The notes under the pieces were generated by a model, which did no database searches, had not been told where the DNA came from, and saw only the letters and a list, made by a program, of their open reading frames with translations. Positions 24,459 through 62,974 of a stretch of DNA of 64,000 nucleotides are shown here, piece by piece. The stretch comes from Photorhabdus laumondii subsp. laumondii (GTDB taxonomy: Bacteria > Pseudomonadota > Gammaproteobacteria > Enterobacterales > Enterobacteriaceae): NCBI RefSeq assembly GCF_003343245.1, contig NZ_CP024901.1:5394001-5458000 (forward strand). Reading direction: 5' to 3'. Within the stretch, counting starts at the first letter, position 1. Every line of letters begins with the position of its first letter. The position numbers were made by a program, and so were the translations under genes.

Positions 24459-24493
24459 AAAAAAACACCTACCTTAAAAATAAAGATAGGTGT
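24459..24493 (-). terminator. Intrinsic terminator of glmZ
   Basis: On the minus strand, stem ACACCTATCTT pairs with AAGGTAGGTGT (one mismatch in 11 bp) around a 7-base loop, followed by seven T. Confidence 0.92.
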
Positions 24494-24674
24494 ACAAATA
24501 CAATCAGGTCTACAGACGGATAGTGCCTCACTCAACGTTGAGTCCGGTCGGCGATGAAAAGAGGGTTATATCTTACTCATCTGTGACATGGACAATAGGC
24601 ACCGATAATCGGCTCTGCATCATCCCTGGGTTTATGAAGCATATGCAATCATAAGAAATAGGATGAGCATCTAC
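24459..24674 (-). ncRNA. glmZ: GlmZ small RNA
   Basis: Read leftward, the region matches E. coli GlmZ in several blocks I recall: the 5' end GTAGATGCTCAT, the middle GATGCAGAGCCGATTATCGG, the glmS-pairing block ACTCAACGTTGAGTGAGGCA (palindrome at 24530-24543), and a 3' terminator. Length about 216 nt against about 207. It lies between hemY and the tRNA cluster, near its E. coli place beside hemY. GlmZ with Hfq activates glmS translation and is cut by RNase E with RapZ. Sequence drift is seen in the loop regions. Confidence 0.9.
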
Positions 24675-42542: not shown

Positions 42543-42869
42543 TCAGAGATTAGCATCCAAAAATTCTTTCAATTGAGTTTTTGACAGTGCTCCCACTTTT
42601 GTAGCAGCAACCTGACCATCTTTAAACAGCAACAGTGTAGGAATACCACGGATACCATACTTAGGAGCAGTTGCCGGGTTGTCATCAATGTTCAATTTAG
42701 TAATAGTCAGTTTGCCTGAATATTCTGGGGCAATTTCATCTAAAATAGGTGCAATCATTTTACATGGTCCACACCAGGCAGCCCAAAAATCGACAAGAAC
42801 TGGACCTGCTGCGTTAAGAACGTCAGTATCAAAGCTAGCGTCACTCAAATGAATAATTTTGTCGCTCAT
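42543..42869 (-). CDS. trxA: Thioredoxin 1
   Basis: 108 residues with the active site [13 protein letters not shown] and cis-proline segment [11 protein letters not shown]. General cytosolic disulfide reductase. Divergent from rhlB. Confidence 0.98.
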
Positions 42870-42987
42870 TTTTTACTCCAAAGAATAATTTTTTACCATG
42901 CTAGTGTAACATTACTGATATAAGGTTGCCTTTATTTCAGCGGATACACTTTCGTAAGACAATGGTTAACTGATATTCTACCACACT

Positions 42988-51199: not shown

Positions 51200-52054
51200 A
51201 TGTTACACAAAATAGACAAATCACCGTATTTTATTAAATTCTATAAATTCCATCTACAAGATCTCGTTTTCTCTTATAATATGCAAACAGAATGGCATCA
51301 TCATCCTTGCATCCAATTAAGTGTATCACCACATAATTCACTCATGAGGATTGATACTGAAAATGAATCGAGGCAAGCACATGGATTCATTATTTCTTCT
51401 AATATTAAACATAAATTACACTCGGAAGGGCAACTCTGTTTTAATCTACTGATAGATCTAGCCAACCCATTATGTCATTTATTACTACATCAGATGAGAG
51501 GCTCAGATATAATATATTTAAATCAAGAATCATCTGGTTTGATAGCAAACTATTTTACTAATTGTTTACAATCAGAAACCTCTCCAGATATTTTCATCTT
51601 AAATAACCTTTTAGGTAAAATAGAAGATTGCCATTGTTATCAAGATAAACGAATCATAAAAGCAGCCTCTCTTATTACTGAATTACCGGTTAAATGTATA
51701 TCCTCTCGTGAAATATCAAATCAACTCTATTTATCCGAAAGTCGATTCTTGCATCTCTTTAGAGAAAAAATGGGAACTAATTTCCGCAGCTATCTATTAT
51801 GGAAACGCCTGCATCATGCTATTGATGAGATACATTCATCAGATTCACTGACTTTATTAGCTTGTAATAGCGGATTTTCCGATGGCGCACACTTCAGTCG
51901 TACCTGTATGACGCTATATGGATTAAGGCCCTCTGAATTAAAACATGCCAGTAAGAACAGAATTCAACAAGCACAACAAAAATATTTCAATTTATCATCA
52001 ACATTAACAGGTCTAAATTTTACAAAGAAAAATATCTGGGTTATGAATAAATAG
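51200..52054 (+). CDS. AraC-family transcriptional regulator
   Basis: 284 residues. The N-terminal part has a cupin-like start (TEWHHHPCIQLSVSP) as in AraC-type ligand domains. The C-terminal ~100 residues hold two helix-turn-helix motifs (REISNQLYLSESRFLHLFREK and LTLLACNSGFSDGAHFSRTC, then YGLRPSELK). GGACACC precedes the ATG. It is the first gene of the accessory block and the most likely controller of the operon beginning at 53914; the inducer is unknown. Confidence 0.85.
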   Translation: MLHKIDKSPYFIKFYKFHLQDLVFSYNMQTEWHHHPCIQLSVSPHNSLMRIDTENESRQAHGFIISSNIKHKLHSEGQLCFNLLIDLANPLCHLLLHQMRGSDIIYLNQESSGLIANYFTNCLQSETSPDIFILNNLLGKIEDCHCYQDKRIIKAASLITELPVKCISSREISNQLYLSESRFLHLFREKMGTNFRSYLLWKRLHHAIDEIHSSDSLTLLACNSGFSDGAHFSRTCMTLYGLRPSELKHASKNRIQQAQQKYFNLSSTLTGLNFTKKNIWVMNK

Positions 52055-52434: not shown

Positions 52435-53520
52435 TCATTTTAATGGTACATGCTCTTTCAGATAATTTTCTACCCATTTAGCGACCCGACAAGTGTCTTT
52501 ATAAGCCCCTAACATCAATTCAGAACCACGGCTACTCAACCATTTCCGCCCAACGATAAATAACCCAGGATAAGGGGTTTTCCCACCTTCTGCATGACCA
52601 TTTTTACAAACGAATCCATTAGCATCCGCAGCACCGGGAAGCGTTAACCATGCCGTATCATCTTTATACCCCAAACACCAGATAACCGTATCCACCTCAT
52701 ATTGATTGCCGGACGAATCACATAATTTATTGTCTTTTATATCAACTAACCTATTCGCTATTTTTATATCCAAAACAGCTAATCGATGGTTTTTCAGATC
52801 ACCACAAGGGATAGGATTACGCCGCCGCATAATTTTCCCGACTAAACTGTAATAATTGGCAAATAACAGACCGCTTTTACTTAACCACCAAAAGATATCT
52901 TTGCCCAATATTCTATTAGGTAAGAGAGGACGGGAGGAACCACAAAATAATGTCACCTTCGCAGTTGCTGCCAAATCTTTAGCAATCTGACGACCACTCG
53001 CACCATCACCAACGACAGCAACTCGGCTGCCCGTTTTAATTTGCTTAGGTTCCCGATATTGATCTGCTGTAATTTGTTGTATATCGGTAGAAAACCGCTC
53101 AGCAAGCGCCGGAATATCAACTAATTGATTAGCCCCTGTTGCATTAACCAAACAAGGTGCATGAAATACTTTTCCATCTTTTGTTTTAACACGATAGCCA
53201 TCTGTATCGTGCTTCACCTCAACCACTTCGGTTTGAGTATGTATCGCAAGGTTATGATGTGAAGCATAGCGCTCAAGGTAATCAGCGACTTCATTTTTAT
53301 CTGGATAACCTTCTTTAATTCCAGGGAACGGTAAGCCATGAAGTTGAGTCATACCGCGTGAAGTGAATAATAGCATATTATCTGGACGCCTGCGCCACAC
53401 ATCACCAATACGTGCCTCCCGCTCTAATATGCAGACATTAATATTCTTAGCCGCAAGGGTAGCAGCTAAACTTAACCCGGCTTGACCGGCACCCACAATT
53501 AAGCAATCCATTTTCATCAT
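52435..53520 (-). CDS. FMO-like FAD/NAD(P)H flavoprotein
   Basis: 361 residues of the flavin-containing monooxygenase/thioredoxin-reductase-like fold. FAD motif LIVGAGQAGLSLAATLA at residue 6, an Arg-rich GDVWRRRPDN after it, NAD(P)H motif VAVVGDGASGRQIAKDL near residue 170, and late LGYKDDTAW. Related proteins oxidise amines, sulfides or ketones, or reduce substrates with NADPH. It is divergent from the seven-gene operon and probably tailors its product (inference). Confidence 0.8.
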   Translation of the reverse strand: MMKMDCLIVGAGQAGLSLAATLAAKNINVCILEREARIGDVWRRRPDNMLLFTSRGMTQLHGLPFPGIKEGYPDKNEVADYLERYASHHNLAIHTQTEVVEVKHDTDGYRVKTKDGKVFHAPCLVNATGANQLVDIPALAERFSTDIQQITADQYREPKQIKTGSRVAVVGDGASGRQIAKDLAATAKVTLFCGSSRPLLPNRILGKDIFWWLSKSGLLFANYYSLVGKIMRRRNPIPCGDLKNHRLAVLDIKIANRLVDIKDNKLCDSSGNQYEVDTVIWCLGYKDDTAWLTLPGAADANGFVCKNGHAEGGKTPYPGLFIVGRKWLSSRGSELMLGAYKDTCRVAKWVENYLKEHVPLK

Positions 53521-53913: not shown

Positions 53914-55092
53914 ATGGAAAATATCAAAAATATATATGACGGTATAAAATCTCGTGGCGGAAATCCGTTGAAGTGGCTAATAGCCGATGTCGACCTTCTC
54001 TATAAGTTGTCTAAAGAAGAACAACAGGAATTAAAAACCTGTTTGCTTAAGGACGCTTTTAATTTCCATTATCATAATAACCCTTACTATAAAGATATTT
54101 GTGAAAAACAAGGTATTAAACCAGAAGATATCCAGAACTATAATGATTTGGTTCGCATCCCACTCATACCCGTTGCAACTTATAAATCAGCCGAAAGTCA
54201 CCGTTTATTAAGCAAACCATTATCTGAAATCGAACATGAAATGCGCTCAACGGGTACCAGTGGAATTCCTAGCGTTTATCGTCGTTGCCACGATACGATG
54301 GATCATACAGTATTGGCTGTCTATTCCAATTATCGCAGTATGTTCAAAGTATCTGGCGGTGCCGGCCTATGCTTATGCCCGTCAACAGAAGATATTCCAG
54401 AAATGGCACTGGTCAAAATCTTTAATTTCCTGACGGGTTTATTAGATACCCGACGCTATATGATTAATCAGGACCACTTCTCCCCAGAAGATGCTTTGAA
54501 TCAATTAATCCAGTGGAAAGGCAAATTCACCCGGCATTTAATTGGCCCTCCATTCATGATCCATCGTTTTATTACGTTCCTAAAAGAGAATAATACCAAG
54601 CTCACTTTAGATCGCGATAGCATGGTAATTACTATGGGCGGCTGGAAACGTTTTACCGGGGATATGATCTCCCGCAGCGAATTGAATGCAGATATCGAAG
54701 AATGGATGGGCATTCCAGCTTCCCGGAATCGTGATATGTATGGTCTGGTTGAAGCAAACGTCCTTGCCATCGAAGATGAATATAACCATAAGCATGTTCC
54801 TCCTTATATTCATTTCTCCGTCCGTGATCCTAACGATTTAACACGTGAATTACCTGATGGCGAAACCGGACAATTAGTGATCTTAGATCCACTCTCTGTT
54901 TCCACTCCCGGCATGTTACTGACAGAAGATTTGGTCTACTTGCGTACCGATCCTAATAAATCCTGGCGTAATTCTCAGCGAATTCAGTTTGTTATGCGTA
55001 CCGCTGCTGCTAAAGAGTTTGGTTGCTGTGCGGTCAACCTTGAGAGAAAAATGTCAGACGATGAAAGTACCTCAGCTACACCCGCAGTATAA
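53914..55092 (+). CDS. LuxE-like acyl-protein synthetase (acyl-AMP ligase)
   Basis: 392 residues of the LuxE/PaaK part of the adenylate-forming superfamily. The ATP-binding motif RSTGTSGIPS is at 111-120. LuxE activates a fatty acid as acyl-AMP and takes it on a cysteine near its C-terminus (Cys364 in Photobacterium); here Cys371-Cys372 (FGCCAVNLERK) hold that place. CGGAGATG precedes the start. No luxA/B/C/D genes are near, so light production is not its job; loading an acid onto the nearby ACP or forming an activated acyl is more likely (inference). Confidence 0.85.
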   Translation: MENIKNIYDGIKSRGGNPLKWLIADVDLLYKLSKEEQQELKTCLLKDAFNFHYHNNPYYKDICEKQGIKPEDIQNYNDLVRIPLIPVATYKSAESHRLLSKPLSEIEHEMRSTGTSGIPSVYRRCHDTMDHTVLAVYSNYRSMFKVSGGAGLCLCPSTEDIPEMALVKIFNFLTGLLDTRRYMINQDHFSPEDALNQLIQWKGKFTRHLIGPPFMIHRFITFLKENNTKLTLDRDSMVITMGGWKRFTGDMISRSELNADIEEWMGIPASRNRDMYGLVEANVLAIEDEYNHKHVPPYIHFSVRDPNDLTRELPDGETGQLVILDPLSVSTPGMLLTEDLVYLRTDPNKSWRNSQRIQFVMRTAAAKEFGCCAVNLERKMSDDESTSATPAV

Positions 55093-55108
55093 ATAGCAAG
55101 GTGGAATT

Positions 55109-55465
55109 ATGTTTAACAACATCATTATTGACAACTTTTGCAATCCTGATTGCCAGGGGACGTTATCCGCCCCCACCATTAAACTGGCATTAGGTAACCC
55201 TGTATGTGGTGACAAGGTTGATATCGACCTGACATTAGATAACCAAGGGCGGGTAAATAATGCCTGTTTTCGTGCATGGGGATGTACCGCCTCCCTGGCA
55301 ATGTCTAACCAGTTTTGTCGCCATGCTAAAGGTAAGACTCTCGAAGAATTGAATGCATTATCGCCTGAAGGCATAGATGCATTATTAGGTGAGTTAGAAC
55401 CCGCACAGCAACACTGCCTTGATATGCTGCATAAGCTATTTGAGCAGCTAAAGGGAAAAATATGA
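55109..55465 (+). CDS. IscU/NifU-N-like Fe-S scaffold protein
   Basis: 118 residues. The scaffold ligands are kept: Cys33 in GNPVCGDKV with Asp35, Cys59 in AWGCTAS, His102-Cys103 in QQHCLDM. Four further cysteines (11, 15, 53, 70) are unusual; Cys11 and Cys15 replace the normal HY-NPRN segment. It may assemble a cluster or carry persulfide sulfur from the next gene product. It starts 16 bp after the LuxE-like gene and overlaps the desulfurase gene by four bases. Confidence 0.85.
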   Translation: MFNNIIIDNFCNPDCQGTLSAPTIKLALGNPVCGDKVDIDLTLDNQGRVNNACFRAWGCTASLAMSNQFCRHAKGKTLEELNALSPEGIDALLGELEPAQQHCLDMLHKLFEQLKGKI

Positions 55466-56652
55466 CAAGTCTATATTTCGACTACAACGCCACAACACCG
55501 CTAAGTGTTAAAGCACAGTTGGCGATTAAAGACGCAATGTCTGTTTTTGCTAATCCATCTAGCCACTACAGCTTAAGTAGCATGGCGAAAAAGTTGCTCA
55601 CTGACGCTAGAATATCGATGGCTGCATTGATGGGCACAGTCCCAGAGCAAATCCTGTTTACATCAGGGGGAACCGAAAGTAATAACCAAGCCTTATCCAG
55701 CTTGTTAGCAACACTTTCCGGTTCGGATCTGTCTGCTCATCATGTTATTAGCTCTTCCATTGAGCATCCGTCTGTTCTGGCACCGTTACTCTGGTATCAG
55801 CAACGCGGACTTCAGCTAACACTGATCAACCCCGATAATCAAGGACGGATAAGTGTACAAAGTATCCAGGAAAACTTGCAGCCACAAACCCGTCTGATCA
55901 CCTTAATGGCGATTAACAACGAAACCGGCGTGATCCAGCCCTATGAAGCGGTCGCCTCTTTAGCAAAAGAGGCCGGTGTTTATCTGCATATCGATGCAGT
56001 ACAGGCTATTGGTAAACGGCCTTTTAGCTGTGACACACTTTCCGGTGTAACGACCATATCTTTCTCCGGCCATAAGTTTAACGGCCCGAAAGGTATTGGC
56101 GGGCTTTACCATGCACCAGGTATTCAATTAAATCCCTTGCTACATGGTGGAGGGCAAGAACAAGGAGTACGCAGCGGCACTGAGAACACCTTAGGACTTG
56201 CTGGACTGGCGGCGGCAGCTAAAGAATCACTGAACAGCTTGCAAGGACGCTTCAATACTTACAAAACGCTCAGAACAACCTTGCTATCTCGGTTAGATCA
56301 ACATCATGTTAACTACCTAATTAATGGTAATACCAATCCAGCGTTTCAGGCACCTTGGACTCTCAATTTAAGTTTCTCGGGTATTCGTGCTGAATCGCTA
56401 GCCAGCAGGCTAGATTTACGTCACGGCATCTCTTTATCCTTAGGATCAGCCTGTAGCAATAACAAATCAACCCAACGTTCTCACGTTCTGGCTGCTATGG
56501 GATTACCCGATGATCGTATTGATAGTGCGGTACGCATCAGCTTCGGATATGCCACAAGCCAAGATGATATTGAGATATTGGCTAACGCCATCAAACAAGA
56601 AACGTATAACTTACTTAAAATTTCAGGGAAATCTTTAATCACCCAGGAATAA
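55462..56652 (+). CDS. NifS/IscS-like cysteine desulfurase
   Basis: 396 residues, class V aminotransferase fold. PLP lysine Lys205 in SFSGHKFNGPKGIGG, stacking His102 in SIEHPSVL, and catalytic Cys331 in LGSACSNNKSTQRSHVL, followed by RISFGYATSQDDI. All essential residues are present, so it should release sulfur from cysteine as persulfide. ATGA overlap with the scaffold gene makes a functional pair very likely. It is not in an isc or suf operon, so it probably serves this pathway. Confidence 0.92.
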   Translation: MTSLYFDYNATTPLSVKAQLAIKDAMSVFANPSSHYSLSSMAKKLLTDARISMAALMGTVPEQILFTSGGTESNNQALSSLLATLSGSDLSAHHVISSSIEHPSVLAPLLWYQQRGLQLTLINPDNQGRISVQSIQENLQPQTRLITLMAINNETGVIQPYEAVASLAKEAGVYLHIDAVQAIGKRPFSCDTLSGVTTISFSGHKFNGPKGIGGLYHAPGIQLNPLLHGGGQEQGVRSGTENTLGLAGLAAAAKESLNSLQGRFNTYKTLRTTLLSRLDQHHVNYLINGNTNPAFQAPWTLNLSFSGIRAESLASRLDLRHGISLSLGSACSNNKSTQRSHVLAAMGLPDDRIDSAVRISFGYATSQDDIEILANAIKQETYNLLKISGKSLITQE

Positions 56653-56684
56653 TAGAAAAATTTAAATTTTTAGGGGACATTAAT

Positions 56685-56921
56685 ATGAAACTGTTTGAAT
56701 TACTTCAATCTCAAATTACTGAATTAACCGATATCGAACCAGAAGATATTACTCTCGACACTCTACTTGATGATATTCATTTAGTGAGTCTGGATTTCGT
56801 TTCTATTCAGGTTGCGTTAAAAAGAGAAATGGGAATTCAACTGAATTTCGATAAGTTCCAGCGGGATAATACGACAACAATCGGTGACTTTGTCAATTAC
56901 GTTAGTGAATTAGCAAAATAA
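56685..56921 (+). CDS. Acyl carrier protein
   Basis: 78 residues, acidic four-helix ACP fold. The phosphopantetheine serine is Ser35 in DDIHLVSLDFVSIQV; the usual Asp before it (DSL) is Val here. AGGGGACATTAAT precedes the start. It should carry the growing chain for the ketosynthase, dehydratase and reductase genes that follow. Not the housekeeping acpP, which would lie in the fab cluster. Confidence 0.9.
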   Translation: MKLFELLQSQITELTDIEPEDITLDTLLDDIHLVSLDFVSIQVALKREMGIQLNFDKFQRDNTTTIGDFVNYVSELAK

Positions 56922-56940
56922 TCATCACGAATACACTGGG

Positions 56941-56980
56941 ATGTTAGCTGTCTATGACAATATCACAACACAGCTAACAT
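56941..56980 (+). terminator. Intra-operon hairpin between ACP and ketosynthase genes
   Basis: A perfect 11-bp stem ATGTTAGCTGT / ACAGCTAACAT with an 18-base loop, followed by TCATTTTTATG. It fits a partial terminator or a processing/stability hairpin, which would raise ACP mRNA over the downstream genes. Confidence 0.6.
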
Positions 56981-57076
56981 TCATTTTTATGATGCTTTTA
57001 TCTACCAATCCTATTATTTGGTTGTGTTAAAAAATAAAGCATGTCACCAGGAAATGAATTTTGGAGATAATGTTTC

Positions 57077-58342
57077 ATGAATATTCAAACAGGCTATCAC
57101 CGCGTTGCCGTCACAGGCTATGGTTCTATCTGTTCGCTTGGGCAAAATACCCAAGAAATTTGGGATGCAATCCTAAATTATCGTGTAGGCTACAAAAAGG
57201 AAGAACACCCAGACGCTTCTGTTGTAGCTAAATTTTTCGGTAATATCCCTTTCTCGCCTGATGTATCACGGTTTTCCAAAAAGTTATTAAAGAACCTGCC
57301 CAAATTCAGCAAACTTGGGCTGATTGCGGCGGATGAAGCAATCAAGATGGCATTTGGTAACGATAAAACCGCTCTTGACGAAAATTATTCGCCTTTTGAA
57401 CGCGGCGTCATTTTTGGCACTGGCTGGGGTGGAGAAGATGCAACCGTTGAAAACAGCCATTCCTATGCTGATCAAGGCATTGCTTCACCGATGACCAATA
57501 TTATGTCTATGCACAGCGTAGGAACAGCCGCAATTTCAATGAACTGGAACTTACGGGGATATCAAAATACCCCGGTTGCAGCTTGTGCAACCGGCAGTAT
57601 GGCGATAGGTGATGCGTTTGAACTTATCCGCAGTGGACGCACTAAAATGATGCTGGCAGGGGGTGGTGAAAGCATCAGAGATCCATTCATTGTCTGGAGT
57701 ATCGACATTCTTGGAGCATTGAGTAAAGAACAGGAATCTGTCGAAAAGGCTTGCTGCCCATTCAGTAAAGATCGTAGTGGTTTTGTTATGTCGGAGGGTG
57801 CCGCAATATTATGCCTTGAAGACTATGATTGCGCTGTTGCCAGGGGAGCTAAAATACTGGCGGAAGTGATTGGCTATGGCAATAACTCTGATGCGTCAGA
57901 TATGACCGCCCCGGCCCCAGATTGCAAAGGACGGGTCATGGCAATTCAGATGGCGCTGGAACAGGCCAAACTCTCCACCTCAGATATTCACTATATTAAT
58001 GCTCATGGGACATCAACCCCATTAAACGACATTAACGAAACCGATGTTCTAAAAATGAGCCTGGGCGAGCACGCTTATCGTATTCCTATTTCCAGTACAA
58101 AATCCTATACAGGCCATCTTATTGCCGGAGCAGGAGCAATTGAATCCATTTTCTGTCTCAAAGCGATAGAGACAGCAACGATTCCCGCAACGATGCACTT
58201 GAATAACCCTGATCCGCTATGCGATCTGGATTATGTCCCCAATATCCACCGAACTCACCAACTTATTGACACCGCTTTAAATGTTAACTACGGATTCGGT
58301 GGCACAAACTGTGCACTTATTTTCAGGAAGGCCGATAGATGA
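57077..58342 (+). CDS. Beta-ketoacyl-ACP synthase (FabF-like)
   Basis: 421 residues of the KAS I/II family. Catalytic triad Cys170 (VAACATGSMAIGDA), His310 (NAHGTSTPLND) and His347 (KSYTGHLIAGAGA), plus the glycine-rich NYGFGGTNCALIF end. It should condense acyl-ACP with malonyl-ACP. Tyr for Met in KSYTGH is a minor variation. GGAGATAATGTTTC precedes the ATG. Coupled to the next gene by ATGA. Confidence 0.9.
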   Translation: MNIQTGYHRVAVTGYGSICSLGQNTQEIWDAILNYRVGYKKEEHPDASVVAKFFGNIPFSPDVSRFSKKLLKNLPKFSKLGLIAADEAIKMAFGNDKTALDENYSPFERGVIFGTGWGGEDATVENSHSYADQGIASPMTNIMSMHSVGTAAISMNWNLRGYQNTPVAACATGSMAIGDAFELIRSGRTKMMLAGGGESIRDPFIVWSIDILGALSKEQESVEKACCPFSKDRSGFVMSEGAAILCLEDYDCAVARGAKILAEVIGYGNNSDASDMTAPAPDCKGRVMAIQMALEQAKLSTSDIHYINAHGTSTPLNDINETDVLKMSLGEHAYRIPISSTKSYTGHLIAGAGAIESIFCLKAIETATIPATMHLNNPDPLCDLDYVPNIHRTHQLIDTALNVNYGFGGTNCALIFRKADR

Positions 58343-59154
58343 ACGTTCAATTTAGCAAAAAAGATCTCAGTCAATGGGCTAAATTCTCTGGAGACTACAA
58401 TCCTATCCATTTTGATGAAAAAATCGCAAGAGAAGTTGGGTTAGGTGGTATTGCAGTACACGGCATGCTGGCCATGATCCCGCTCAAAAGCGGATACGAT
58501 TATCTGTCACAACTAAATCGGGAAATGGGCAGACAGTGGCACGTTAATTTACGCAATCCCGTACCTCTGGATGCCTGCTATTGCGTCAAAACTAAGCACA
58601 CTAACCGGAATGGGAAAACGACCTTTAATCTGCAAGACGAAACAACCAACCTGAAACCTCTGATTGGTCACTATAGTTGTTTCGATTTTTCACAAAAAAC
58701 TAGCTTTCCCGAAAAACCACGTTGCCAAGTTCCCATACAAGAGACAATAAAAAAATCCATCGAATTTAAACATACCTTCCCGGAAGTCAATGAATTCTGG
58801 ATCTTTCTTGATGCTCTGATGTTTTATCTTTTTATGCAGCAAAGTGCCAAAACTGCACTAGCAACAGAATTTAAAACCTATTTTGGCAAACAAGAACATG
58901 ATGAAACATGCCTCAAAGATCTCATTGTTTTGCATGTTATGCACACCGTGAGTTTCTCTCCAGCGCTGCTTAATCGCCAAATCCCAGATGAAATGCCAAA
59001 TATCGAATATACGATCGTACCAAAAGATACATTCGACGTTGATGGTTCGTTATACGGTACGCTGGAAATCCCGATCTGGCTGAATGGCGAAATCTCTTTA
59101 GTTGTTGAGATGAGTCTGATGGGAACAACAAAAAGAAAGCAGATTGCCAACTAA
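58339..59154 (+). CDS. MaoC-type hotdog dehydratase/hydratase
   Basis: 271 residues. The N-terminal hotdog has the hydratase-2 motif with Asp19 and His24 (SGDYNPIHFD) and GGIAVHGML; these are the catalytic pair of R-specific enoyl hydratases. The C-terminal half (about 130-271) is unlike known enzymes to me and may be a second, degenerate hotdog. Probable role: dehydration of 3-hydroxyacyl-ACP. Confidence 0.8.
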   Translation: MNVQFSKKDLSQWAKFSGDYNPIHFDEKIAREVGLGGIAVHGMLAMIPLKSGYDYLSQLNREMGRQWHVNLRNPVPLDACYCVKTKHTNRNGKTTFNLQDETTNLKPLIGHYSCFDFSQKTSFPEKPRCQVPIQETIKKSIEFKHTFPEVNEFWIFLDALMFYLFMQQSAKTALATEFKTYFGKQEHDETCLKDLIVLHVMHTVSFSPALLNRQIPDEMPNIEYTIVPKDTFDVDGSLYGTLEIPIWLNGEISLVVEMSLMGTTKRKQIAN

Positions 59155-59210
59155 AATCTGATGAATGCGGTATTGGCAGACGGATGGCATAAATTTAGAG
59201 GAATCACTTA

Positions 59211-59954
59211 ATGAATATCAGCACCCCTTGGGTTTTTATTTCAGGTGGATCACGTGGTATCGGCAAAGGCATAGTAAAAATGCTAGCAGCTCAAAACTAT
59301 CACGTGGTTTTTACCTATAAATCCAGCATAAATGAAGCACAAATATTGTGTCATGACATTGAACAGCAAGGTTATCGCTGTGAGGGCTATCAATGTGACG
59401 TCTCAAACGCGAAAGAAGTCACAACATTGTCAGCAGAACTTATCTCACAATATGGCGCTCCTTATGCCATCATCAATAACGCCGGAATTACACAAGATGC
59501 ATTGCTGATAAATATGAAAGAAGAAGAGTGGCATAATGTCATTTCCACCAATCTTTCTTCTATCTATTTAGTGAATCACTCATTTCTCCCTGAAATGATT
59601 ACTGCTGGAGAAGGCTGCATTATCCATATGAGCTCAGTCACTGCATTTAAAGCTAACTCAGGGCAAGTTAACTACGCTGCCACCAAAGCCGCCATGATCG
59701 GTATTACCCGCTCATTAGCTGTTGAAGTTGGCCGATTTAATGTCCGGGTCAATACCGTTGCGCCAGGCTTGATTGACACTGAAATGCTGGCTCATATCCC
59801 CGCGCCACATAGGAAAAAACTGTTATCTAACATCCCACTGGGCCGCTTGGGTTCAGTAGAAGATATTGCTCTGACAGTCAATTTCCTACTCAGCCCTGGA
59901 GGACGCTACATTACCGGGCAAACATTCGTTATTGATGGAGGAATGACCGCTTGA
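59211..59954 (+). CDS. 3-oxoacyl-ACP reductase (FabG-like SDR)
   Basis: 247 residues, classical short-chain dehydrogenase. Nucleotide motif SGGSRGIG (11-18), NNAG (89-92), catalytic Ser142, Tyr155 and Lys159 (GQVNYAATKA), end GQTFVIDGGMTA. AGAGGAATCACTTA precedes the ATG. Completes the ACP, ketosynthase, dehydratase and reductase set; no enoyl reductase is present, so the chain may stay unsaturated. Confidence 0.9.
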   Translation: MNISTPWVFISGGSRGIGKGIVKMLAAQNYHVVFTYKSSINEAQILCHDIEQQGYRCEGYQCDVSNAKEVTTLSAELISQYGAPYAIINNAGITQDALLINMKEEEWHNVISTNLSSIYLVNHSFLPEMITAGEGCIIHMSSVTAFKANSGQVNYAATKAAMIGITRSLAVEVGRFNVRVNTVAPGLIDTEMLAHIPAPHRKKLLSNIPLGRLGSVEDIALTVNFLLSPGGRYITGQTFVIDGGMTA

Positions 59955-60276: not shown

Positions 60277-61449
60277 ATGACCGGAGAAATACAATCACCT
60301 CCGCTTAATGAGAAAAAGTCAAAACGTAAGTTAGCACTGATCCTCGCAACTCTCTTATTTGCTTTTGTCGGGTTGGGTTACTTCACCTATTGGCTTATTT
60401 CATTACGTCATTATCAAGCGACTGATGATGCTTACGTTGTGGGTAATCAGGTACAAGTGATGGCCCAGATCACCGGTAGCGTAACCGCCATTTATGCCGA
60501 TAATACCGACTTCGTTCAACAAGGCGATATTTTGCTACGTTTAGACTCTATTGATGCGGAACATGCTTTTGAGCGAGCGAAAAATACCTTGGCTAATAAT
60601 GTCAGGCAAACTCACCAAACCATTATTGATAATGAAAAACTATTGGCTAACATTGATCTCAAACAAACGGCATTACAACAGGCTCAAGACGATTTAAAAC
60701 GACGTGAACATTTGGGACTCACAGGTGCTATCGCCAAAGAAAATCTGATTCATTCCCGCAATAGCGTACAAATGGCAAAATCTGAGCTGAATGTTGCCCG
60801 ACAACAATATTATGCCAATAAAGCACTAGTTATAGACACCCCATTAGATCAACAACCTGCGATTAAACTGGCCGCTTCCCAGCTCCGCGATGCATGGTTA
60901 ACCTTACAGCGCACCCAGATTGTCGCGCCGGTAACAGGCTACGTTTCACGCCGCAGTGTTCAAGTAGGCTCACAAATAAAAAGTGGTGCTCCACTGATGG
61001 TTATCGTACCCGCTGACCAACTTTGGGTCGAAGCTAACTTCAAAGAAGTTCAACTTGCCAATGTGCGTATTGGTCAACCCGTAACCCTGATTAGCGATTT
61101 CTATGGTAGTGATGTCACTTATAAGGGCCGGATCGTTGGTCTTGATATGGGAACTGGCAGTGCATTTTCTTTATTGCCGGCACAAAACGCCACCGGTAAC
61201 TGGATCAAAGTAGTTCAACGTTTACCCGTTCGTGTTGAACTAGAAGCACAACAACTTATTGCTCATCCTTTACGCATCGGTTTATCCATGCACGCCGCGG
61301 TTGATACCCGAAATCAGGGTGGTCTGGTGCTTGCTGACACGCCTCGTAATGGCATTGTTTATGAAACCAACGTTTTAACTTACAACACCGTAGAAATTGA
61401 TCGGCTAATTAACGAAATCATTCAAGTTAATACCAGTCAAAATAAGTGA
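60277..61449 (+). CDS. emrA: EmrA-like membrane fusion protein
   Basis: 390 residues: short cytosolic tail rich in Lys, one transmembrane helix (about 18-40), then the HlyD pattern YQATDDAYVVGNQVQVMAQ, a coiled-coil hairpin (about 100-180) and the lipoyl half-motif (TQIVAPVTGYVSRRSVQVGSQI). It links an inner-membrane pump to TolC. It is 7 bp before emrB. The closest family name is given; the substrate is unknown. Confidence 0.85.
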   Translation: MTGEIQSPPLNEKKSKRKLALILATLLFAFVGLGYFTYWLISLRHYQATDDAYVVGNQVQVMAQITGSVTAIYADNTDFVQQGDILLRLDSIDAEHAFERAKNTLANNVRQTHQTIIDNEKLLANIDLKQTALQQAQDDLKRREHLGLTGAIAKENLIHSRNSVQMAKSELNVARQQYYANKALVIDTPLDQQPAIKLAASQLRDAWLTLQRTQIVAPVTGYVSRRSVQVGSQIKSGAPLMVIVPADQLWVEANFKEVQLANVRIGQPVTLISDFYGSDVTYKGRIVGLDMGTGSAFSLLPAQNATGNWIKVVQRLPVRVELEAQQLIAHPLRIGLSMHAAVDTRNQGGLVLADTPRNGIVYETNVLTYNTVEIDRLINEIIQVNTSQNK

Positions 61450-61456
61450 GGTTAAC

Positions 61457-62974
61457 ATGCTAAAAGAGCCATTATCAGGAGCCAAACTTGGCTGGCTAAC
61501 CCTGGCTTTAGCATTAGCCGCTTTTTTACAAATATTGGACCTGACCATTGCTAACGTTGCAATATCAACAATTGCTGGAGATCTGGGTTCATCAGTATCA
61601 CAAGGAACCTGGGTTATTACCTCATTTGCTGTTGCTAACGCGATCTCTATCCCATTAACTGGCTGGTTAGCAAAGCGGTTCGGGGAAGTCCGGGTTTTCT
61701 TAATTTCAATGATCTTATTTGTGATCACTTCCTGGTTATGTGGTATTGCTAATAGCTTGGAAATGTTGATTATTTCCCGCGTCCTGCAAGGTATCTCAGC
61801 CGGGCCAATTATGCCCCTTTCTCAAAGTTTGCTACTCAACAACTATCCTCCGCTAAAACGCAATATGGCATTGGCTCTGTGGTCAATGACTATCGTTATC
61901 GCTCCAGTTTGTGGTCCGATACTCGGCGGTTGGATCAGCGACAACTACCATTGGGGGTGGATCTTTCTCATCAACGTTCCGGTTGGCTTTGCCGCCATTG
62001 CTATCACCTGGATGCTGTTAAAAGATCGGGAAACTGAAATAACGGCGAGGTCAATTGATATCGTAGGACTAATTTTATTGGTCATCGGTGTTGGTTGTTT
62101 TCAGCTATTGCTTGATAGAGGAAAAGAGCTTGATTGGTTCAACTCAACAGAAATTATTGCATTAGCCATTATCGCAGTTATTGCCATAACTTTCCTGATC
62201 ATCTGGGAATTCACCGATGATGATCCGATCATTGATTTATCACTATTTAAATCACGCAATTTTACTATCGGTACTTTATGTATCAGTTTGGCTTTCCTAC
62301 TCCATATAGGCACTCTGGTTTTGCAGCCTCAACTATTGCAAATGGTATTTGGTTATACGGCCACTTGGGCAGGATTGGTAATGGCTCCATTAGGGATAGT
62401 GCCAATAATGCTCGTTCCACTCATTGGTCGTTTTAGTTCAAAAATTGATATGCGTTATTTAGTTATGTTTAGCTTTATCATTTTTGCACTCTGTTTCTTT
62501 TGGAGAACTCATACCTTTGAGCTATCAATGGATTTTTCCACTGCTGCCTGGCCACAATTTATTCAGGGCTTTGCTATCGCCTGTTTAATTATGCCACTAA
62601 CAGCCATTATATTATCTGATGTTGAACCCGCTAAAATCGCTTCTGCGGGCAGTTTATTTAACTTTTTACGCACGCTGGCAACATCCGTGGGTACTTCCAT
62701 TACCACGACCATGTGGTCCCGTCGCGAAGCTGTCCATCATGTCCAGTTAACTGAATCGATAACTCCCCATAATCCTATTGCCCAACAAGCCTATGAGAAA
62801 ATGGAACAATTAGGGATGACACACGCTCAAGCCAGTCACTCTCTGGCACGTGAAATCACTAATCAGGGATTGATTATTGCTGCTAACGAGATTTATTGGC
62901 TATTTGGCTTTATTTTTCTGATCTTGCTGATCTTGATCTGGCTGGCAAAACCCACCGTCGGAGAAAAGAAATAA
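61457..62974 (+). CDS. emrB: EmrB-like DHA2 family MFS exporter
   Basis: 505 residues, about 14 transmembrane helices. LQILDLTIANVAISTIAGDLG (helix 1), RVLQGISAGPIMPLSQSLL (motif of helix 4) and GPILGGWISDNYHWGWIFLINVPVG are DHA2 hallmarks. Proton-driven drug or metabolite exporter. In the accessory block it could export the pathway product or protect the cell from it. Confidence 0.88.
   Translation: MLKEPLSGAKLGWLTLALALAAFLQILDLTIANVAISTIAGDLGSSVSQGTWVITSFAVANAISIPLTGWLAKRFGEVRVFLISMILFVITSWLCGIANSLEMLIISRVLQGISAGPIMPLSQSLLLNNYPPLKRNMALALWSMTIVIAPVCGPILGGWISDNYHWGWIFLINVPVGFAAIAITWMLLKDRETEITARSIDIVGLILLVIGVGCFQLLLDRGKELDWFNSTEIIALAIIAVIAITFLIIWEFTDDDPIIDLSLFKSRNFTIGTLCISLAFLLHIGTLVLQPQLLQMVFGYTATWAGLVMAPLGIVPIMLVPLIGRFSSKIDMRYLVMFSFIIFALCFFWRTHTFELSMDFSTAAWPQFIQGFAIACLIMPLTAIILSDVEPAKIASAGSLFNFLRTLATSVGTSITTTMWSRREAVHHVQLTESITPHNPIAQQAYEKMEQLGMTHAQASHSLAREITNQGLIIAANEIYWLFGFIFLILLILIWLAKPTVGEKK

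What the first reader, a model, noticed from the sequence alone, without database searches (positions are those of the whole stretch)
53914..59954. Seven-gene operon joining LuxE-like activation, sulfur mobilisation and a mini fatty-acid synthase
Seen: LuxE-like ligase, IscU-like scaffold, cysteine desulfurase, ACP, ketosynthase, MaoC dehydratase and FabG-like reductase in one rightward operon, with ATGA overlaps within two sub-groups (scaffold/desulfurase and ketosynthase/dehydratase). Known: each family has clear catalytic motifs and all key residues are kept. I know of no described pathway with this gene set. Inference: an acid is activated by the LuxE-like enzyme, extended on the ACP, and either sulfur is inserted or a dedicated Fe-S enzyme is matured. 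The product may be an unsaturated, possibly sulfur-bearing, lipid or short polyketide.
Basis: partly seen in the sequence, partly recalled or inferred. Interest (0 to 1): 0.9.

Follow-up and report, generated by a model that had tools for sequence, protein, structure and literature searches.

The report
LuxE-NifU-NifS sulfur-lipid gene cassette
A gene set that turns up in unrelated bacteria seems to take sulfur from cysteine and place it on a fatty acid, which would be a new way to make rare sulfur-acid lipids; the product itself has not been seen.

Summary
The window is Photorhabdus (inferred: LuxE 95-98% identical to named Photorhabdus). The core is a conserved cassette. Of 50 loci fetched by LuxE, 49 carry NifU- and NifS-like genes and 45 an FMO, in Pseudomonadota and Cyanobacteriota; a Priestia plasmid has it too. 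Elsewhere a fatty-acyl-AMP ligase plus carrier protein supplies the acyl group (35 of 50). In Photorhabdus and two genomes of another family (one Gilliamella) that module is ACP-ketosynthase-MaoC-FabG. The NifU-like protein keeps three cysteines and an aspartate in 53 of 53 distinct loci but lacks the IscU chaperone motif. I saw no recurrent Fe-S enzyme. Best reading: NifS and NifU relay persulfide sulfur to a LuxE-activated fatty acyl group, giving a thioacid or acyl persulfide that the FMO oxidises and a pump exports. The cassette is well supported; the chemistry is inferred (about 0.45).

The parts
51200..52054 (+). AraC-family regulator, probable regulator of the unit
   Evidence: PF12833 HTH_18 64 bits; homologue near the cassette in all 13 Photorhabdus loci and in Xenorhabdus loci; 29 of 50 loci have an AraC match within 9.5 kb
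52435..53520 (-). Class-B flavin monooxygenase (FMO), divergent from the operon; proposed S- or acyl-oxidising tailoring enzyme
   Evidence: Pyr_redox_3 100 bits; FMO in 45 of 50 loci; AlphaFold model pLDDT 93, best PDB folds 4usq, 4c5o, 4usr
53914..55092 (+). LuxE-family acyl-protein synthetase; C371/C372 proposed acyl site
   Evidence: PF04443 127.8 bits; matches LuxE chain 7xc6_E, whose Cys aligns with C371; CC in 53 of 54 distinct rows
55109..55465 (+). NifU/IscU-like protein, proposed persulfide relay
   Evidence: PF01592 70.6 bits; C33, D35, C59, C103, Q100 in 53 of 53 distinct loci, no LPPVK
55462..56652 (+). NifS/IscS-like cysteine desulfurase
   Evidence: Aminotran_5 198 bits; NCBIfam NifS 314 bits, below its 530.75 cut-off; K205, C331
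56685..56921 (+). Acyl carrier protein, Ser35
   Evidence: PP-binding 30.2 bits
56939..56982 (+). Stem-loop followed by a T-rich run between ACP and ketosynthase; possible attenuator or terminator
   Evidence: fold z -3.7; inverted repeat; aligned across Photorhabdus; not listed by the pattern scan
57077..58342 (+). FabF-like ketosynthase
   Evidence: ketoacyl-synt N and C domains; C170/H310/H347; NCBIfam fabF 393.6 bits, below its 493.75 cut-off
58339..59154 (+). MaoC-like dehydratase; the C-terminal two thirds match no Pfam family
   Evidence: PF01575 47.9 bits over residues 4-89; D19/H24
59211..59954 (+). FabG-like reductase
   Evidence: adh_short_C2 196.7 bits; S142/Y155/K159
60277..61449 (+). 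EmrA periplasmic adaptor
   Evidence: NCBIfam PRK15136 641.9 bits, above its 563 cut-off; present in 20 of 50 loci
61457..62974 (+). EmrB-like MFS exporter
   Evidence: ORF, named from its place behind EmrA and its homologues beside EmrA in 20 of 50 loci; not run against a family library

Best explanation
A mobile biosynthetic cassette for a sulfur-bearing fatty acyl product. Shown: a conserved LuxE-NifU-NifS core, nearly always with an FMO, joined to one of two acyl-supply modules (fatty-acyl-AMP ligase + ACP, or ACP + KS + MaoC + FabG) and to an exporter (EmrAB here). Inferred: (1) in Photorhabdus the KS, FabG and MaoC extend a host acyl group on the ACP to a beta-hydroxy or 2-enoyl chain; no enoyl reductase is encoded. 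(2) NifS takes sulfur from cysteine and hands it as a persulfide to C33 of the NifU-like protein, which acts as a sulfurtransferase in the manner of zinc SufU and not as an Fe-S scaffold. (3) LuxE holds the acyl group on C371 and transfers it to the persulfide, giving an acyl persulfide that collapses to a thioacid, R-CO-SH. (4) The FMO oxidises the product, most simply at sulfur to an acylsulfenic acid, R-CO-SOH. (5) EmrAB exports it.
For: 49 of 50 LuxE-fetched loci carry NifU and NifS. The reverse direction agrees: 10 of 13 strong NifU relatives and 33 of 119 listed FMO relatives lie on contigs whose lengths equal those of LuxE contigs. NifU keeps C33/D35/C59/C103 in 53 of 53 distinct loci while LPPVK, the HscA-binding motif (PMC2644719, passages), reads L[EQDS]P[SAE]Q; the housekeeping IscU of the same genome keeps LPPVK. 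SufU moves a persulfide from SufS to its Cys40 and lacks LPPVK (PMC10216065 and PMC2644719, passages). LuxE C371 aligns with the Cys of LuxE 7xc6_E. The alternative ligase belongs to the fatty-acyl-AMP ligases. A desulfurase-ligase fusion in Pseudoduganella (L036) and an ACP-FMO fusion (P0146) tie the parts together. FMO nearest folds include small FMOs 4usq/4c5o/4usr and an S-allyl-cysteine S-oxygenase. Distance matrices of the four core proteins correlate at r 0.85-0.95 over 33 loci.
Against: No product is known. If LuxE itself adenylates a free acid, a second ligase plus ACP is redundant, so the substrate of LuxE is unresolved. The FMO fold match is not specific: N-oxygenases, Baeyer-Villiger enzymes and the LbmA Ox-ACP didomain also match, and the FMO adjoins or is fused to an ACP in some cases, which fits oxidation of an ACP-bound chain as well. 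Two loci with room for an FMO lack one (L024, L055). The NifU residues kept are also those of true scaffolds. The mirror-tree figures have no species-tree control. LuxE-based fetching favours LuxE-bearing loci.
Confidence: 0.45

Rival explanations
1. The sulfur relay is right, but the sulfur ends elsewhere than in a thioacid: for example in a sulfur heterocycle, a disulfide, or on the chain. The FMO oxidises the ACP-bound acyl chain (hydroxylation or Baeyer-Villiger insertion) and not the sulfur.
For: In the AMP-ligase architecture the order is ligase-ACP-FMO and one homologue is an ACP-FMO fusion (P0146); the LbmA Ox-ACP didomain is among the fold matches. In Grimontia the core sits beside a ligase-ACP-condensation-adenylation-PCP synthetase and there is no FMO.
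Against: The core has no recurrent cyclase among the families I identified; LuxE chemistry puts the sulfur relay beside a carboxyl-activating enzyme.
Confidence: 0.27
2. NifU and NifS build an Fe-S cluster for a dedicated enzyme, or protect Fe-S proteins when the product is made.
For: The NifU residues C33, D35, C59 and C103 are those of IscU scaffolds; sequence matches to IscU and NifU structures.
Against: LPPVK is missing in 53 of 53 distinct loci; no HscA, HscB or ferredoxin among the families found in the operon; no recurrent Fe-S enzyme noticed (not every ORF annotated); Photorhabdus has its own IscU.
Confidence: 0.13
3. An acyl-protein or envelope-lipid system: LuxE acylates a protein or lipid, and the desulfurase is a regulator or a separate function, perhaps through the known contact of ACP with cysteine desulfurases (recalled).
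For: MMPL/LolA-like lipid transport genes form one similarity group present in 19 of 27 loci compared (families checked on members).
Against: The NifU-NifS pair is kept next to LuxE in 49 of 50 loci, closer than a bystander would be.
Confidence: 0.1
4. A chance or lineage-bound gene string without joint function.
For: None found.
Against: Same genes in the same order in Photorhabdus and in another family, the core in two phyla and on a Bacillota plasmid, at different chromosomal places.
Confidence: 0.02

Closest known systems
Thioacid cassette PtmA3/PtmU4 (thioplatensimycin; also PDTC, thioquinolobactin, yatakemycin) (PMC6006322, abstract and Discussion read)
   Same: A small transferable gene set that puts sulfur on an activated carboxyl group.
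   Different: PtmA3 is a CoA ligase, PtmU4 a type III CoA-transferase-like enzyme, and sulfur comes from sulfur-carrier proteins. Here LuxE, a NifU-like protein and a dedicated NifS-like desulfurase; no CoA-transferase family in the operon.
Sulfenicin acylsulfenic-acid pathway (Nat. Chem. 2025, doi 10.1038/s41557-025-01833-9; seen only as a reference in PMC12300202; content recalled)
   Same: As I recall, a thioacid is made and a flavin enzyme hydroxylates its sulfur; a flavin monooxygenase also accompanies this cassette.
   Different: The paper is not held, so gene-by-gene comparison was impossible; as I recall the producer is a marine Streptomyces, and no Streptomyces is named among the 120 closest LuxE relatives (only some rows bear names).
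LuxE of bacterial bioluminescence (7xc6_E)
   Same: Same family, aligned C-terminal Cys.
   Different: No LuxC reductase beside it; NCBIfam LuxE score 148.9 against a cut-off of 550; vicinal CC where 7xc6_E has CS.
SufU zinc sulfurtransferase with SufS
   Same: No LPPVK; three Cys and an Asp; paired with a desulfurase.
   Different: Lacks the 19-residue insertion of Gram-positive SufU (118 aa); the partner is of the NifS/IscS type.
Small FMOs CFMO, SMFMO, PsFMO (4usq, 4c5o, 4usr)
   Same: Closest by sequence and by fold.
   Different: 21-24% identity in the fold alignments; substrate unknown here.

Membership tests
PtmA3/PtmU4 thioacid cassette | Type III CoA-transferase-like PtmU4 beside a CoA ligase | tested here: not met
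   No CoA-transferase family among the ten proteins scanned
PtmA3/PtmU4 thioacid cassette | Produces a thiocarboxylic acid | not testable with these tools
   Needs chemistry
IscU-type Fe-S scaffold | Three Cys and one Asp | tested here: met
   53 of 53 distinct loci
IscU-type Fe-S scaffold | LPPVK chaperone motif | tested here: not met
   0 of 53 distinct loci; K replaced by Q in 53 of 53; housekeeping IscU of the same genome keeps it
SufU sulfurtransferase | No LPPVK | tested here: met
   PMC2644719 passage
SufU sulfurtransferase | 19-residue insertion between second and third Cys | tested here: not met
   118 aa without insertion
SufU sulfurtransferase | Zinc binding | not testable with these tools
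   Needs protein
LuxE acyl-protein synthetase | PF04443 domain and C-terminal acyl-accepting Cys | tested here: met
   127.8 bits; C371 aligned to 7xc6_E. That this Cys is the acyl site is recalled
LuxE acyl-protein synthetase | NCBIfam LuxE equivalog cut-off and LuxC partner | tested here: not met
   148.9 of 550 bits; no LuxC among the neighbours scanned
Cysteine desulfurase NifS/IscS type | PLP Lys and active Cys loop | tested here: met
   K205, C331; no NCBIfam equivalog cut-off reached
Class-B flavin monooxygenase | FAD and NAD(P)H dinucleotide-binding motifs | tested here: met
   G10/G12/G15 in 50 of 52 rows, G171/G173/G176 in 52 of 52
Acylsulfenic acid (sulfenicin-type) S-hydroxylase | Hydroxylates thioacid sulfur | not testable with these tools
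   Reference sequence and paper not available
Type II fatty acid synthase elongation set | KS, ketoreductase, dehydratase, enoyl reductase and ACP | tested here: not met
   No enoyl-reductase gene in the operon; the others are present. The FabG-like protein matches PF13561 but NCBIfam ranks it with 3-oxoacyl-ACP reductases

The most novel reading that the evidence does not exclude
A widespread, undescribed route to fatty thioacids and acylsulfenic acids, in which a LuxE-type acyl-Cys enzyme with a CC motif hands an acyl group to a persulfide carried by a NifU-like protein that has left Fe-S assembly, followed by FMO oxidation at sulfur; the acyl-supply module is swappable.
Probability: 0.35. 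Interest if true: 0.87.

Novelty: new variant of a known kind. Interest (0 to 1): 0.68.

Why it matters
Thioacid natural products are few, and the known cassette uses quite different enzymes. This one would add a second enzymatic logic, would explain what a NifU-like protein does outside Fe-S assembly, and gives a simple sequence handle (LuxE EFGCCAVN, NifU PxQxHC) for finding more. It also occurs in nematode and bee symbionts, so the product may act in host association, which is a guess.

Tried and rejected
Viral contigs: no LuxE relative confirmed. Plasmids: 55 records matched, 14 Priestia at about 45% identity, the others listed below 30%; one Priestia record was opened. The Fe-S maturation reading was weighed and lowered (see rivals). 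A lux-like aldehyde route was rejected because no LuxC lies beside LuxE. An operon-internal terminator was looked for: the pattern scan did not list the ACP-KS stem-loop, folding did; left open. Literature: ten searches; the one paper that met three terms was opened for passages and is unrelated, 'LuxE' there being Luxembourg.

The mirror-tree correlation used 33 of 51 rows with all four proteins; I dropped the 13 fetched Photorhabdus, L071-L073 (duplicates of L027, L026, L049), L041 (NifS gene split) and L061. The tree used 41 rows chosen by me. The similarity-group comparison used 27 loci chosen by me as spread. The FMO contig comparison used 119 of 120 listed proteins, one having no contig length.
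Full report
Observation. The seven ORFs, their coordinates and both ATGA overlaps are as described. Pfam places each protein in the family named, above its gathering score. NCBIfam shows that LuxE, NifU, NifS, ACP, KS and MaoC all stay below the cut-offs of every equivalog they match, that is, they are divergent members. Catalytic residues are present.

The organism. The window lies at 5394001-5458000 of a single 5.69 Mb contig. LuxE is 95-98% identical in all 11 other genomes of the same genus that were searched, and the matching named records are Photorhabdus. The other 26 relatives searched gave no match better than E 2.5e-16.

The unit is larger than reported. A divergent FMO (52435-53520), an AraC regulator and EmrA/EmrB flank the seven genes; they are present in the Photorhabdus loci, and Xenorhabdus loci carry AraC and EmrAB with the cassette too. 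In P. australis (L017) FabG is incomplete and EmrAB were not found in the locus.

A conserved cassette. A profile of LuxE fetched 50 loci from a genome collection. NifU and NifS relatives lie beside LuxE in 49, an FMO in 45, a fatty-acyl-AMP ligase in 35, and KS/MaoC/FabG in 13, all Photorhabdus. The one locus without NifU/NifS (L058) ends about 1.1 kb after LuxE. Of the five without FMO, three are short contigs (L043, L058, L059) and two are not (L024, L055). L059 has neither acyl-supply module in its last 1.9 kb. The lineages include Xenorhabdus, Photobacterium, Shewanella, Pseudoalteromonas, Pseudomonas, Cellvibrio, Lysobacter, Azohydromonas, an alphaproteobacterium (Actibacterium) and three cyanobacteria, and a Priestia plasmid with annotated LuxE, Fe-S scaffold, desulfurase, AMP-binding proteins, phosphopantetheine-binding protein and oxidoreductase in a row. 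Fetching by LuxE biases these counts; the reverse searches help. With NifU as query, 13 strong relatives exist and 10 sit on contigs whose length equals that of a LuxE contig; with the FMO, 33 of 119, a lower bound since both lists are capped (shifting the lengths by a few bases gives 0 or 1 match). Within the own genome, two further LuxE-like genes (27% and 35% identity) have no NifU_N gene beside them, since the genome has only two: this one and IscU.

Two architectures. In type A, LuxE-NifU-NifS is followed by a fatty-acyl-AMP ligase (best solved relatives are fatty-acyl-AMP ligases; NCBIfam agrees), an ACP (separate or fused) and the FMO. In type B, ligase and its ACP are absent and a different ACP with KS, MaoC and FabG stands in their place. 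Type B was seen in Photorhabdus and in L069 and L070, two genomes of one other family. In a LuxE tree, Photorhabdus, L069, L070, Brenneria rubrifaciens and four proteins of unknown context form one clade (100/100), inside type-A lineages, with Xenorhabdus as neighbour. The five type-B rows need three changes of label on that tree because the context of the other five clade members is unknown to me; one swap is the simplest reading, not a shown one.

Gene fusions and further context. Pseudoduganella has one ORF with desulfurase and AMP-ligase domains (L036). P0146 joins a phosphopantetheine domain to the FMO. Grimontia has the core with a ligase-ACP-condensation-adenylation-PCP protein and no FMO. 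A group of MMPL/LolA-like proteins follows the cassette in 19 of 27 loci compared (Pfam or NCBIfam checked for L024, L037, L053, L055). EmrAB replaces it here. Both point to an exported hydrophobic product. That E. coli emrB gives thiolactomycin resistance is recalled, not checked.

NifU as sulfurtransferase. In 53 of 53 distinct loci C33, D35, C59, C103 and Q100 are invariant, and C70 in 52. The segment before C103 reads L/I-x-P-x-Q-x-HC where the housekeeping IscU reads LPPVKIHC. LPPVK binds HscA and is absent from SufU (PMC2644719, passages). In M. tuberculosis, SufU takes persulfide sulfur onto Cys40 with zinc bound (PMC10216065, passages). So the loss fits a relay role; it does not prove it, since the metal-binding residues of scaffolds remain.

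LuxE. The model (mean pLDDT 82, low around residues 157-163 and 372-378) has the PaaK-family fold. C371 aligns with the Cys of 7xc6_E. The CC pair is present in 53 of 54 distinct rows, L058 being the exception. The ATP-binding STGTSG stretch and acidic residues are conserved; that these suffice for adenylation is recalled family knowledge.

FMO. The model (mean pLDDT 93) matches CFMO, SMFMO and PsFMO best; DiatB, an insect N-oxygenase, an S-allyl-cysteine S-oxygenase, Baeyer-Villiger enzymes and the LbmA Ox-ACP didomain also match. Fold therefore does not fix the reaction.

Mechanism and limits. The best reading is given in the field for it. Shown: gene content, residues, conservation, module exchange. 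Inferred: every chemical step. The weakest points are why both an AMP ligase and LuxE are needed in type A, and whether the FMO acts on sulfur or on the chain.

Comparison with the known. The PtmA3/PtmU4 thioacid cassette (PMC6006322, abstract and Discussion) works on the same idea with unrelated enzymes. Sulfenicin biosynthesis may be nearer in its last step, but the paper could not be read. Ten literature searches of the open library were run, nine of them about this gene set or its chemistry, and none returned a paper on it; subscription papers are largely outside that library.

Noticed in passing
L014 and L015 ACP-KS gap; L022 NifS-ACP gap: A similar repeat of about 125 bp is inserted in these intergenic gaps of three Photorhabdus species, in two of them inside the stem-loop region.
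   Followed up: partly
window 56939-56982: Conserved stem-loop with T-rich tail between ACP and ketosynthase genes; may split or attenuate the operon.
   Followed up: partly
L041 11646-14940: In Calothrix sp. PCC 7716 the desulfurase gene is in two ORFs with a 385-aa ORF between them that looks like a transposase by eye.
   Followed up: no
L055 12770-18953: Grimontia marina: core beside a thioesterase-like ORF and a five-domain ligase-ACP-condensation-adenylation-PCP synthetase, without FMO.
   Followed up: partly
L017 15385 onward: Photorhabdus australis has an incomplete FabG and no EmrAB found in the locus.
   Followed up: no
window 58339-59154: The MaoC-like protein is 271 aa, but only residues 4-89 match Pfam; the rest is unassigned.
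   Followed up: no
window 24459-24674 and 42840-42927: GlmZ sRNA and a TrxA 5' UTR thermometer match Rfam above gathering scores.
   Followed up: no
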